From the NCBI RefSeq assembly GCF_000711695.1, contig NW_013546881.1, positions 1-36,201 of the forward strand: a DNA stretch of 36,201 bases. The letters are read 5' to 3'. Both the position numbers and the translations under genes were made by a program. Source of the DNA: Tilletiaria anomala UBC 951. Its lineage: Eukaryota > Basidiomycota > Exobasidiomycetes > Georgefischeriales > Tilletiariaceae. Of the stretch, positions 15,629 through 29,443 are shown in pieces (position 1 is the first letter of the stretch; each line of letters opens with the position of its first letter). A model generated the notes under the pieces. That model had not been told where the DNA came from, did not search any database, and saw only the letters and a list, made by a program, of their open reading frames with translations.

Positions 15629-18600
15629 ATGGCCCCTCCATCACTTCCTCTCACGCGCTCTCCGTCGTCGACAGCCGAATCGGACTCGACGCTGAGCACC
15701 AACCCGACTGCGACAGCCACACCCTCCATCGGCCTTTCGATGGGCAGCAACGCTTCCCTCACCAGCCTCGAGGACAGCAGCAGCAGCGTGCCCAGCTCTC
15801 CGTCTGCGTCTACCATTCTTCATGCCAAAGAGCAACACCTCACTCGCATGGCCGCCGCTAGCGGCGGTGCCTTCGGCGCAAGTACCTCTTCTACGCCCCA
15901 CGTAGTCCCCGGCGAGCATCCTCTCAAGTCGCGCCGGGCGCCAACTACAGGCTATCGTTTCTCCACCATCTGCGCCACCATCGATGATCCTGCGCACCAT
16001 GACCAGTACGGCGCCTCGTCGACGCCGATTTACATGTCCGCCACATTCAAAGGCCCGCCAGGCGCCGAGTTCGACTACTCGCGCTCAGGCAACCCTACGC
16101 GCAGCATGCTGCAGCACCACCTGTGTCAGCTGCAGAACTGCAAGTTTAGCTTCGCTGTCAGCTCCGGCATGGCCTGCCTCGACGTCGTCACCCGGCTGCT
16201 GAAGCCGGGCGAGCGCATCGTCGCCGGCGACGACCTCTACGGGGGGACGAACCGCCTGCTCGGCTACCTCAAGTCGCACGGCGGCGTAGAGACGGATCAC
16301 GTAGATACTACGAATGCCGAAAAGGTGGAGCAACTGCTCGAGCAGCGAGCGAAGGACATCACGGCTGGCACGCCGGGGATTGGACCCGTCAAGATGGTCC
16401 TTCTGGAAACCCCCACCAACCCTCTCCTAAGAGTCATCGACCTCGCTCGCTGCTGCAAGGCCGTGCGTCGCTTCGCACCGGACGCGCTGATCGTTGTAGA
16501 CAACACGATGATGTCGCCCTATCTCATGCGTCCGCTCGAGCTCGGCGCAGATGTTGCGTACGACTCGGGCACCAAGTACCTCTCCGGCCACCACGACCTC
16601 ATGGCCGGCGTAATCGCCTGTGATAGAGACGACGTCGGGAAGCAGATCTCCTTCACAATCAACAGTGTTGGCAATGCGCTGACGCCGATGGACTCGTTCC
16701 TGCTCCTGCGCGGCATCAAGACCCTTGCCGTGCGCATGGACCGCCAGCAGGAGTCGGCCGTGCAGGTCGCGCAGCATCTGCATCGCCTCGGCTTCAAGGT
16801 TAACTACCCTGGTCTTGCCTCGCACCCGGGCAAGGCGATCCACGACGCGCAGGCCGCCGGCCCGGGCGCCGTGCTGTCGTTCGAGACGCACGACGAGGAT
16901 CTGTCCAAGCGCATCGTCGGCGCCGCGCGCCTCTGGGGCATCTCCGTCTCGTTCGGTTGCGTCAACTCACTGATCAGCATGCCATGCCTGATGAGCCATG
17001 CGAGCATCGATCCCAAGGTTCGCAAGGCGCGCAAGCTCCCCGAGGATCTCATCCGCCTCTGCGTCGGCATTGAGGATTGCAGGGACCTGATTGAGGATCT
17101 GCAGAACGCCCTGCTGGAGGCCGGTGCGATCCGCAAGAAGTACAAGCGCAGGCCGCAAGGACAGCCGCAGGTTCATGCTCAAGTAACTGGAGATAGACAA
17201 GGAGAGGATGAGAAGGAGGAGGAGGAGGTCGAGTACGAGCGAGTTCCAACCGAAGCAGAGGCGGAAGAAGCCAACTACCTTCGCTCAGGTCCAGGTAGCA
17301 CCGGCGGCCTTGACGTCAATCGCCTCGAGACGCGCGGAGGCGACGACGATGAGGACAACAGTACCGATGCGGCTGACGTTGCCCCACATCCGCCTCGCGC
17401 GCAAAACATCAATTCGAACCTCAACACGGCCGTAGGGTCCGTCCTGATCGCCGATGCTTCCGCTCGCAGGGCCGGTGCCGGCTTCGCTGAAGACCATGTG
17501 CCATCACCGTCGGTCATTGTGTCTGCTCCGGGCAAAGTGATCCTGTTTGGCGAGCACGCCGTCGTCCACGGCGTCACAGCCGTCGCGGCGGCTGTTGCGC
17601 TGCGTTGCTTTGCACAGGTCAGCCCGCGCTCTGACGGATGCATCAGCCTGAATCTACTCGACCTGAAGGTCGAGCACATCTGGCGCCTCAACGATTTGCC
17701 GTGGGACCTCGTGCCGACAAAGGATGTGCGCGATGGAGACGATCTGGCCTCGCCCGATTGCCTTGATGCGCGTCTCAAGCTCGCGATCGAAAAGCTGGTC
17801 ACGCAGACTGCGAAGGAAACTCAGAAGAGCTACGCGGCTTCAGTTGCTTTTATCTATCTGTACATGTGCATCGCTGGAAGGGAGCAGAAGTGAGTCATGC
17901 GCTCAGTCTGAGGCTTGTGTCAAAGGATATATGCTGACATCTGCGCCTCTCTTCTTTTTTGGTGTTCATAGCGGCGGGCAGTCCTTCTTGCTTCGCTCTG
18001 CGTTGCCTATTGGCGCAGGTCTAGGCTCTTCCGCTGCGTACTCGTCCTGCTTGGCCACCGCGCTGATTTATACGCATGACCACTTGCCTCGGCCCGCCGG
18101 CGGAGCAGCTGGCAGCATCAACGCTTCTGAAGCCTCGCTTATCAACGCTTGGGCCTTTCTCTCTGAGAAGGTGCTGCACGGAAACCCGTCCGGCGTGGAT
18201 AACTCTGTCTCGGTGCACGGTGGCGCGCTGGTATTCAAGCGCGCGCACGCTCGCAACGGCCTGCTTGCCAACGAGATGCAGGCACTGCACGGCTTCCAGT
18301 CTGTTCGCTTCCTGCTCACGGACACCAAGGTGAGCAGGGATACGAAGAAGCTCGTCGCGAACGTCGGACGGCAGCTGGAAGAAGAGCCAGAGCGCATCAA
18401 TGCGCGTCTTGCAACGATCCAGTCCATCTCCAATGCCGCGTCCAAGCTTCTTGGTACTTCCAGCAGTGCCTCGACACGCCAAGAGTTGCTCAAGGAGCTT
18501 TCTGCCCTCATCGAACAGAACCATGCGCAGCTTGTGGATCTACAAGTCAGCCACGAGTCGCTCGAGGCCATCCGCGCCACCACAGCTAGCGAGCCGTGGC

Positions 18601-18893
18601 AGCTGTCCACCAAGCTGACTGGTGCCGGCGGGGGAGGATGCGCCGTCACGCTTCTCCCGGACGAGCTTCTGCCCGAGCAGCTCGACGGACTCATCAGGGC
18701 GCTGGAACAGCAGGGTTTCGCGTGCTACGAAACGAGCATTGGCGGCCCTGGTATCGGTTTGCTGGTCAATCGAGGTGGCGAAGATCAGAATGCTGGCTTT
18801 CCTGCCGACCGCGCCTTGTTCGTTCAGGGCGACGGCAATAAGATTGCAGAATGGACAAAGACACATGGTCCCGATGCGTGGGCCTTTGCTTAA
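15629..18893 (+). CDS. Fusion protein: cystathionine beta-lyase + mevalonate kinase
   Basis: One gene of two exons (15629-17889 and 17972-18893) encodes 1060 residues. Residues 1-100 are Ser/Thr-rich. Residues about 105-500 form a complete PLP-dependent cystathionine beta-lyase of the metG/Str3 type (cystathionine to homocysteine): YSRSGNPTR, AGDDLYGGTNRLL, and the PLP lysine Lys316 in SGTKYLSGHHD. Residues about 505-627 are an acidic, low-complexity linker. Residues 628-1060 form a complete mevalonate kinase (Erg12; ATP + mevalonate to 5-phosphomevalonate): SAPGKVILFGEH, PIGAGLGSSAAY (766-777), Glu819, Asp830 in GNPSGVDN and TGAGGGGC (970-977). There is no in-frame Met between about residue 460 and well inside the kinase, so the kinase cannot start separately in this frame. 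The start has an ideal context (GCCATGG). The intron splits the kinase between Gln753 and GGQSF. Neither end carries a recognisable PTS1. Confidence 0.93.
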
Positions 18894-26828: not shown

Positions 26829-28470
26829 ATGGTCGTGATGCCGCGGATAACATTCGTGCCAGGTCTGCTGCTGCTGGTCGGGTTGAACGCCGCGGGCTGC
26901 CTGGCTGCCGTGCCAAACGCCAATGATTGGCATCTCACAAACGTTGTCAAAAACCTTGAACTGCACGGTTCCGTATCGCAAGCGATAACGACGTACACCG
27001 TCAAGCGAGGCTCGGGTTCATCGGAACCCTTCTTCGTCGCCTTCAGTGCAGCGGAATACGAGAAGCTCGCCTTCGCCGATGCCATCGTCGATGGGCAAGG
27101 GAAGACCCCCACAGCTCTGCCGCTCCAGGATGAGGGTCTCGATCCAGAAGATCCCACGACGCACCTTGCCTCCTTGAACCTGCCGGAAAGCGCAGCTGAG
27201 GTCACCGTGTCGGTCCGATGCGCCTACAACCATCTCGTAGAGGCGCTCCCCAAGGTGATCGCTCAGACGGATCCAGTGCTGCTTATATGGAAAGGAGACG
27301 TGGGTCTTCGCACACCCTACGTAGCCGACAAGGGCAGAGTCAAAGTAATGTGAGTGACCACCGCGCTAGCATGAGATAAAAAGAGATATCTCTGACGACA
27401 TGATGTTCTCGCTTGTATGCAGCACGCCGATCCAAAACGTTCCAAACTACACACCAAAGGACGAGACGGCGACCAAATCGGGCAACAAAATTACCTTTGG
27501 CCCCTACGAGAACATCCAACCTTACCGCTCCGCGTCGATCAAACAAGGAAGCGTGCACTACGAGCACCCTGTACCAGTTACCAGCGTCGTGACTTTTGAC
27601 AGAGTCGCTGAGGTTTCGCACTGGGGAGACAACATTGCCATCGAAGACCGCATCTGGTTGCGCAACGATGGACCGGCACTGAAAGGTCACTTCTCGCGAA
27701 TTGACTACCAGATGGCGCAGTTCAAGCAGAAGGGACAGGCGAGCACCTTGATCCGCTTCCGGGTGCACTTACCAGCCGGGGCGAAGGACGCCTACTTCAT
27801 CGACCAGATCGGCAACGTCTCCACCTCGCGCTTCTATCCTGCCCCGCCTGCGCCGCATCTCATCGCGACACCCTCGAATTTGCTCGGCGAGAGACGGTCC
27901 TCGGCGCTGGACCTTCAGCCGCGCTATCCAATTCTGGGTGGATGGAACTATACGTTCAGCATTGGCTGGAACCAGAAGCTTAGCACGGGTGGCTGGGCCA
28001 AGCGGCTCGGAGCTGGCACCTACAGTGTCTCCGTGCCTTTCCTCACACCTGTCGGTGATGCCACCGCTCTCGACGACGTCAAGACCACCATTGTTCTGCC
28101 CGAAGGCGCAACGTGAGTAGCGATTTTTGAATGGGACTTCGCGCAAGCCCGCCGGCTTTCGGAGCAGCCAACTGACACATTCCTTTTTGCCTTGATGACT
28201 CACAGTGACATCAAGACGTTCCTACCCTTTGCGGTCGATAGCTTGACCCAGCAAAAGTACGTGACATATCTCGATACGGTCGGACGGCCTTCCCTCGTGC
28301 TCGAAAAAGCAAGGTGCTCCGAGAAGCACTCGCAGCTGGTCTACGTTCAATATCGGCTATCGCCAACTGCCCATTTGCGCAAACCACTCGCTGTCTCCAC
28401 CGTCGCGCTCGGGCTGTTTATGCTTGCTGGTGCACTACGGAGATTCGATCCAAAGATCAAGGCGCAGTGA
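26829..28470 (+). CDS. OST1: Oligosaccharyltransferase subunit Ost1 (ribophorin I)
   Basis: A subunit of the ER oligosaccharyltransferase that N-glycosylates nascent proteins. Exons 26829-27349, 27423-28112 and 28206-28470 join in frame to 491 residues; yeast Ost1 is 476. A signal peptide (about 1-27) is followed by the lumenal ribophorin I domain. Diagnostic blocks are NDWHLTNVVKNLELHG, TFGPYENIQPY, FDRVAEVSHWGDNIAIEDR, KDAYFIDQIGNVSTS and PRYPILGGWNYTFSIGWN. A single membrane helix lies near the end (about 460-482), followed by a short polar tail. Start at 26829 or the in-frame ATG three codons later; both keep the signal peptide. Confidence 0.95.
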
Positions 28471-28785: not shown

Positions 28786-29443
28786 TCAGTACGCATGACC
28801 ACCTCCGGGCGGTTTGTGGGACCAGCTGTCCGCGGCAGCGTGACTGGGAGCATACGGCCAAGTCGCACCTGTCTCTCTTCCTTCGTCGGCAACATCCACC
28901 TCTTCACGGGACGGTGCTGAAATTTCTCCGCGACGGTAGCCCGGCCCGCCACCTTGGGGAGTGTGCGAAAAATCGTCGCCGGATGGAGAGCCTTTGCCGC
29001 CGTCGTGGTGGACGTGTTCGCCGCCACGGGCAGGTTCGCGGTTGTTACCGCGTCGCGCTACGAGCGATGCCTTTCCTGGCACTACTGCTGATGCAGCACC
29101 GAGAGGTACTCTGGCTTCGCGCAAGATGGATGAACGCTCAAAAATGTCCATGTCACGGTCGTCGTCCCGTTTGAAAGACGGGCCGCCGCCTGGTGGCGTG
29201 TGAGAGAAGTCATCCTGGCTGGCCGAGCCGTGATTCCTGTTGTCCAAAAGGCTGTCCGGCCGGCCTGAGCATAGGTCAAATTGACTCAGCGTCATTATCA
29301 TTCTCCCCTCGCGGCAGCGTTGCTGCTTCCCAGATGAAGCTCGACTCACTATCAGTGCGGGGCCTGCTGTCAGGAGTTGCTTGTGCGACGGTCGCGAAAA
29401 GCGACGCGCCTGTGAGGATGAGGGTTGTTTTGGACCACAGCAT
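28786..29443 (-). CDS. Secreted precursor with three 14-residue peptide repeats and Kex2-type sites
   Basis: Exons 29443-29350 and 29264-28786 join in frame (phase 1) to 190 residues. Residues 1-22 are a clear signal peptide, with cleavage after AQA. Three copies of a 14-residue module follow: DDFSHTPPGGGPSF (49-62) then Lys-Arg, DDFSHTPQGGGPGY (128-141) then Arg-Arg, and DSWSHKPPGGGHAY (177-190), which ends at the stop codon. A further Arg-Arg lies near residue 110. Kex2-type cutting would therefore leave the module at the C-terminus of three fragments. The repeats use different codons for the same residues, so the peptide rather than the DNA is conserved. This layout is that of fungal Kex2-processed repeat proteins, alpha-factor-like pheromones and ustiloxin-type RiPP precursors. 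I do not recognise this peptide. Function unknown. Confidence 0.8.
28789..28830 (-). repeat. Peptide repeat 3 (DSWSHKPPGGGHAY)
   Basis: The most diverged copy: Trp replaces Phe, Lys replaces Thr and His replaces Pro. It needs no C-terminal cleavage because the stop codon follows directly. Confidence 0.8.
28930..28977 (-). repeat. Peptide repeat 2 (DDFSHTPQGGGPGY + RR)
   Basis: Identical to copy 1 at 11 of 14 residues but with many synonymous codon differences. It is followed by Arg-Arg, a Kex2-type site. Confidence 0.85.
29167..29214 (-). repeat. Peptide repeat 1 (DDFSHTPPGGGPSF + KR)
   Basis: First copy, followed by Lys-Arg, the preferred Kex2 site. Confidence 0.85.

What the first reader, a model, noticed from the sequence alone, without database searches (positions are those of the whole stretch)
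28786..29443. Possible new family of Kex2-processed secreted repeat peptides
The sequence shows a signal peptide, three gap-free copies of a 14-residue module (consensus D-[DS]-[FW]-S-H-[TK]-P-[PQ]-G-G-G-[PH]-[SGA]-[FY]), KR and RR right after the first two copies and a stop right after the third. Synonymous codons differ between copies, so selection has kept the peptide. Known classes with this layout are mating pheromones, Kex2-processed repeat proteins such as smut Rep1, and RiPP precursors. I do not know this core sequence from any of them. The module sits at the C-terminus of each predicted fragment, not between two dibasic sites, which is unusual.
Basis: partly seen in the sequence, partly recalled or inferred. 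Interest (0 to 1): 0.85.

Follow-up and report, generated by a model that had tools for sequence, protein, structure and literature searches.

The report
Orphan secreted peptide precursor in Tilletiaria
A little-known relative of smut fungi carries one gene that looks like the precursor of three secreted peptides sharing a selection-kept 14-residue ending; such precursors are common in fungi, but this one has no detected relative and an unusual layout.

Summary
On the minus strand, 29443-28786, an 85-nt intron (29349-29265) gives a 190-aa protein with a signal-like N-terminus and three 14-residue modules, followed by KR, RR and the stop codon. The repeat is beyond chance (0 of 1000 shuffles), and selection has kept the peptide. 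The window is Tilletiaria anomala UBC 951. The deposited model K437DRAFT_265082 shares intron 1 but has a second, 43-nt intron that destroys module 3; I judge this an annotation error or an alternative isoform. Three of these end in the module.

'New family' is not shown: three searches of 5.8 billion proteins gave only the gene itself and two chance matches, and the genome shows one locus. Best reading: a lineage-specific Kex2-processed repeat protein (KEP) releasing hydrophilic linear peptides; signalling is inferred. Orphan KEPs are common (2560 of 7878, PMC7329392). Unusual here: only the C-terminal end of each predicted peptide is conserved.

The parts
28786..29443 (-). Whole coding region, two exons (29443-29350 and 29264-28786, stop included), 190 aa
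   Evidence: same start and first intron in deposited protein P0001
29378..29443 (-). Likely signal peptide MLWSKTTLILTGASLFATVAQA
   Evidence: By eye and hydropathy; coordinates; no signal-peptide program run
29265..29349 (-). Intron 1, 85 nt, GTGAGT...CTCAG
   Evidence: also in the deposited model
29173..29214 (-). Module 1, DDFSHTPPGGGPSF
29167..29172 (-). Dibasic site KR directly after module 1
29056..29166 (-). Predicted 37-aa spacer piece without a module
29050..29055 (-).
28936..29049 (-). Predicted 38-aa peptide ending in module 2
28936..28977 (-). Module 2, DDFSHTPQGGGPGY
28930..28935 (-). Dibasic site RR directly after module 2
28789..28929 (-). Predicted 47-aa peptide ending in module 3
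28789..28830 (-). Module 3, DSWSHKPPGGGHAY, followed directly by the stop codon
28826..28868 (-). 43-nt second intron of the deposited model, which would remove the first five bases of module 3 and shift its frame; doubted here

Best explanation
The gene encodes a lineage-specific Kex2-processed repeat protein (KEP). Shown by sequence: a signal-like N-terminus, three selection-kept 14-residue modules, a dibasic site or the stop codon directly after each, and a Kex2-type protease gene in the genome. Inferred: the precursor enters the ER; Kex2 in the late Golgi cuts after KR64, RR103 and RR143; a Kex1-like carboxypeptidase trims the basic residues. This would release peptides of about 40, 38 and 47 aa that end in the module, plus a 37-aa spacer. 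Inferred with less support: the peptides are linear, hydrophilic extracellular ligands whose shared C-terminal part D-x-[FW]-S-H-x-P-x-G-G-G-x-x-[FY] is the recognised end, the unlike N-terminal parts being mere carriers. My odds: real expressed gene 0.93; secreted 0.9; cut at the dibasic sites 0.8; linear rather than cyclised 0.85; ligand for a receptor of the fungus or of a neighbour (plant or microbe) rather than a structural or metal-binding role 0.5. The confidence given is for a secreted KEP cut at these sites, without the ligand step.
For: Gene model and modules; repeat beyond shuffles; purifying selection on the module; two of three dibasic sites exactly at module ends, third module at the stop; Kex2-type protease with Peptidase_S8 and P-domain in the genome, S10 carboxypeptidases; S1' and S3' pockets of yeast Kex2 may accommodate acidic residues (PMC2515848, passages), which fits KR|DDD and RR|GEI; KEP peptides have been detected in basidiomycetes (PMC9769878, passages); the module peptides are hydrophilic (GRAVY -1.41, -1.58, -0.92).
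Against: No orthologue, so nothing shows that the sites are kept in other species. The deposited model lacks module 3. Only 22% of the protein is module, and PMC6339444 calls motifs separated by variable regions atypical of KEPs. No dibasic site on the N-terminal side of the modules, so the 14-mer itself is not a predicted product. No transcript, peptide or phenotype seen. Six KEP knock-outs in Coprinopsis showed no apparent phenotype (PMC9769878).
Confidence: 0.7

Rival explanations
1. A secreted, mostly disordered protein that stays whole; the modules are binding motifs and the dibasic sites are not cut.
For: Long unlike spacers, low module coverage of 22%, no observed product.
Against: Two of three dibasic sites fall exactly at module ends (1.7e-4 by chance), and the third module ends at the stop.
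Confidence: 0.15
2. The deposited two-intron model is the main transcript: module 3 is not made, or only in an unspliced isoform.
For: P0001 is reproduced exactly by the 43-nt intron 28868-28826; 93% of models in this genome had transcripts covering more than 75% of their length (PMC4056295).
Against: Module 3 is conserved against modules 1 and 2 in the unspliced frame, with synonymous sites nearly saturated, and ends exactly at that frame's stop.
Confidence: 0.2
3. An alpha-type pheromone-like peptide of the ascomycete kind, acting in mating.
For: Copy-KR-copy-stop layout and an aromatic C-terminus; PMC6339444 reports alpha-type layouts in other basidiomycete KEPs.
Against: Sequence match to yeast alpha-factor (recalled) is within background: for the 13-mer 341 and 1586 of 41,720 background windows score as well as the windows in modules 3 and 2; for the C-terminal 7-mer 55 and 285 of 45,158 for modules 2 and 1; within-module shuffles reach the score in 0.07 to 0.58 of cases. 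No run of XA/XP dipeptides after the dibasic sites. STE2 family gave no match (no positive control); a STE3 receptor is present, as expected for a-type pheromones.
Confidence: 0.06
4. Mimic of a plant C-terminally encoded peptide (CEP) hormone, acting on plant receptors.
For: Against a CEP profile, module 1 scores above 0 of 41,720 background 13-mers being as good, module 2 with 6 of 41,720 as good; within-module shuffles reach these in 0.7% and 0.4%. T. anomala DNA has been reported from intercellular fluid of rice (PMC4056295).
Against: Module 3 does not match (score 3.36, reached by 15% of its shuffles), and an unrelated spacer stretch of the same protein scores 14.64, with only 25 of 41,720 as good. 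The CEP ending with G-H is absent. The columns invariant here, D1, S4, H5, P7, G9-G11, are mostly not those that define CEPs. The family was picked after recalling several. The species' role in nature is unknown.
Confidence: 0.03
5. A repellent-type surface protein like Ustilago Rep1, or a cyclised RiPP of the ustiloxin type.
For: Rep1 peptides are 35-53 aa and Kex2-cut (PMC4617103), a similar size; ustiloxin-type precursors share signal peptide and Kex2-spaced repeats (PMC7329392); each module has F or Y at its end.
Against: Rep1 repeats are amphipathic and form surface-active fibrils; these peptides are hydrophilic. UstYa family gave no match (no positive control). No tailoring enzyme among the window frames scanned, which were 12 of the 34 ORFs and one further OST1 exon; two of those 12 matched no family. 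Only 103 of 1680 basidiomycete KEPs had a UstY-type neighbour (PMC7329392).
Confidence: 0.08

Closest known systems
Kex2-processed repeat proteins (KEPs) of fungi
   Same: Signal-like N-terminus, three repeats, dibasic sites at repeat ends
   Different: Only the C-terminal 14 residues of each piece repeat; the rest of each piece is unlike
Rsp1 of Ustilago maydis
   Same: Described as hydrophilic imperfect repeats separated by putative Kex2 sites, 260 aa, in a smut (PMC4617103, passages)
   Different: Eleven repeats of 18 or 21 aa in Rsp1; three 14-residue modules with long spacers here. Sequences were not aligned: I had no Rsp1 sequence
Rep1 of Ustilago maydis
   Same: Kex2-cut peptides of 35-53 aa, similar size to the pieces here
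   Different: Rep1 repeats are amphipathic and form fibrils; these are hydrophilic
Ascomycete alpha-type pheromone precursors
   Same: Copy-KR-copy-stop layout, aromatic C-terminus
   Different: No Ste13 dipeptide signature, sequence match within background, no STE2 match (no positive control)
Plant CEP peptides
   Same: Partial match of modules 1 and 2
   Different: None in module 3, no G-H end, other invariant columns

Membership tests
KEP | N-terminal signal peptide | tested here: inconclusive
   Hydrophobic stretch and AQA end by eye; no predictor run
KEP | At least three repeats of at least 8 aa in pieces bounded by Kex2 sites | tested here: met
   Three 14-mers, in three of four predicted pieces; by the deposited model only two
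KEP | Repeats make up at least 15% of the protein (rule of PMC6339444) | tested here: met
   22%; rule seen
KEP | Repeat spans most of each released piece (usual form) | tested here: not met
   14 of about 40, 38 and 47 residues; flanks unlike. The surveys' own pipelines were not run
KEP | Cleavage by Kex2 shown | not testable with these tools
   Kex2-type gene present
Alpha-type pheromone precursor | Ste13 signature (XA/XP run) after the Kex2 site | tested here: not met
   Residues after the sites are DDDRDM, GNNREP and GEISAP
Alpha-type pheromone precursor | Cognate STE2 receptor in the genome | tested here: inconclusive
   No match, but no positive control
Ustiloxin-type RiPP precursor | UstY (DUF3328) gene nearby | tested here: inconclusive
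   No match in the genome, but no positive control
Rep1-type repellent | Amphipathic repeats | tested here: not met
   GRAVY -1.41, -1.58, -0.92 for the module pieces; amphipathicity itself was not computed
Plant CEP mimic | CEP domain with terminal G-H in the repeats | tested here: not met
   Modules end PSF, PGY, HAY; module 3 does not fit the profile

The most novel reading that the evidence does not exclude
A new type of peptide signal in the smut lineage: a precursor that joins one short C-terminal recognition element to three unrelated carriers, so that each released peptide has the same receptor-binding end and a different body. The third peptide may be switched on or off by splicing of the 43-nt segment 28868-28826.
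Probability: 0.12. Interest if true: 0.7.

Novelty: new variant of a known kind. Interest (0 to 1): 0.38.

Why it matters
The two published KEP surveys required three repeats in annotated proteins. The deposited model of this gene shows only two modules, so it could not have qualified by this module. If the third module is real, gene-model errors hide such precursors. If the peptides are made, they are concrete, easily synthesised candidate ligands in a homothallic fungus whose role in nature is unknown (PMC4056295).

Tried and rejected
Homologue searches: whole protein (1587 candidates), masked three-module profile (only the 7992 candidates sharing most words were scored), widened-word profile (1230 candidates). 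Apart from the gene itself they gave P0002 (E 3.3) and P0003 (E 6.7). I read both: neither shows a module next to a dibasic site, each has one partial match, and both are taken as chance. Own genome, protein: the two exons and one match on C47 (E 0.43), taken as chance and not read further. Own genome, DNA pattern: 12 matches against 3 for the control pattern. Three are this gene, 8 were read in frame and none continues like the module, and 1 (contig C198) got no locus and was not read. Pfam: no family at E <= 1 for either form of the protein. PDB: one match, E 1, Filamin-B, taken as chance. Alpha-factor and CEP comparisons: see rivals.

Structure prediction was not tried: a spliced, mostly hydrophilic orphan would give a poor model. 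Metagenome DNA scans had a cap of zero and no fungal genome collection other than this genome is on hand, so orthologues in other Exobasidiomycetes could not be sought at DNA level. Supplementary tables of the KEP surveys could not be opened (cap zero), so a listing of this gene there is not excluded; their main texts do not hold the word Tilletiaria. Searches of the paper library. 'Tilletiaria anomala' with 'Kex2' gave 0 papers; the library holds open-licence papers only.

Full report
What is there. The window is a contig of Tilletiaria anomala UBC 951 (Basidiomycota, Exobasidiomycetes, Georgefischeriales). The minus-strand gene at 29443-28786 has one well-formed intron, 29349-29265, and encodes 190 residues. 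The deposited protein K437DRAFT_265082 (P0001) has the same start and the same first intron. The ATG has A at -3. The gene lies tail to tail with a ribophorin I / OST1 gene (26829-28470; 315 bases between the stop codons). Upstream, on the other strand, begins a MAK16-type gene (30698).

Is the repeat real? Three 14-mers, DDFSHTPPGGGPSF, DDFSHTPQGGGPGY and DSWSHKPPGGGHAY, are followed by KR, RR and the stop. Their three-way score is 168; the best of 1000 shuffles of the same protein is 87. Synonymous sites are changed at 87, 97 and 89%, non-synonymous sites at 13, 26 and 29% (Fisher p 1.4e-5, 3.0e-5, 0.010 on rounded counts). The copies are therefore old and selection has acted on the peptide in this frame. 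Similarity stops at the module: in the 4, 6, 8 and 12 residues upstream, 0.30, 0.23, 0.25 and 0.12 of 5000 shuffles reach the observed score.

Predicted pieces. With the signal cut after A22, the pieces are 40, 37, 38 and 47 residues once the basic residues are trimmed; three of the four end in a module. One search lists the first as 41 because the script started one residue early. The module pieces are hydrophilic (GRAVY -1.41, -1.58, -0.92; the spacer -0.02).

The deposited model. P0001 is reproduced exactly by a further 43-nt intron, 28868-28826, which removes the first five bases of module 3 and shifts the rest. That model therefore holds two modules. Because module 3 is conserved in the unspliced frame and ends at that frame's stop, I take the one-intron form as the functional one (about 0.8). 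But 93% of this genome's models had transcripts covering more than 75% of their length (PMC4056295, whole text read), so an alternative splice form is possible.

Machinery. The same 18.4-Mb genome has a Kex2-type protease (L012: Peptidase_S8 and P-domain), S10 carboxypeptidases (21 matched stretches), DPP-IV-type matches in two adjacent stretches and STE3 matches in three stretches of one contig. STE2 and UstYa gave no match, but those two calls had no positive control. The carboxypeptidase and DPP-IV matches were not resolved to Kex1 or Ste13.

Relatives. Three searches of 5.77 billion proteins returned the gene itself and two matches taken as chance (read). In the own genome the protein is found at one place (a further match at E 0.43 is taken as chance) and the module pattern at 12 places, three of them this gene; 8 of the other 9 were read and are not modules. 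The word filter of the protein search, missing or wrong gene models and the lack of other fungal genomes here limit what these negatives mean. So this is an orphan; a 'family' is not shown.

Comparison with known systems. KEPs are widespread: PMC7329392 (abstract, section 13 and passages seen) counts 7878, of which 2560 had no homologue. PMC6339444 (abstract, the results section, section 15 and passages seen) describes KEPs in basidiomycetes with alpha-pheromone-like layout, and says that motifs separated by variable regions do not fit the usual form. PMC9769878 (passages seen) detected such peptides in mushrooms, saw no apparent phenotype on deleting six KEP genes, and noted possible cleavage after single arginines. 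The present gene meets the repeat-number rule (three) and the 15% rule (22%), but only the C-terminal 14 residues of each piece repeat. Rsp1 of U. maydis, hydrophilic and with putative Kex2 sites, is the nearest by description (PMC4617103, passages seen); I had no sequence to align.

Tests of specific readings. Alpha-factor: scores lie within background and there is no Ste13 signature (and sequence). CEP hormone: modules 1 and 2 score high (0 and 6 of 41,720 background 13-mers as good), module 3 does not, a spacer stretch of the same protein also scores fairly high (25 of 41,720), and this protein's invariant columns are mostly not those of CEPs. I looked at this family after recalling several, so it is only a lead. 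Reviews seen in passages list CEP-like peptides in nematodes and one bacterium (PMC8618561). Repellent or cyclised RiPP: against, by hydropathy and by lack of a UstYa match (no positive control).

Verdict. Observation confirmed; interpretation partly supported. It is an orphan KEP with a C-terminally anchored module. Secretion and cleavage are likely but unshown; signalling is an inference.

Noticed in passing
window 15629-18893, + strand: One open frame (15629-17893, 754 aa) joins a Cys/Met PLP-dependent enzyme domain (residues 123-495) to the start of a GHMP-kinase-like sequence (22.6 bits, just under the cut-off of 23.1); the rest of the kinase follows in another frame at 17724-18893 (GHMP_kinases_N and _C, over cut-off). 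A possible gene fusion or two genes without a stop between.
   Followed up: partly
window 29049-28936, - strand: The predicted second peptide carries a His-rich stretch, GGEHVHHDGGKG; with the invariant S-H of the module, metal binding is conceivable.
   Followed up: no
G000 contig C145, 12993-14057 (L013-L015): A STE3-type receptor is present while STE2 gave no match, as expected for a basidiomycete (STE2 call without positive control).
   Followed up: no
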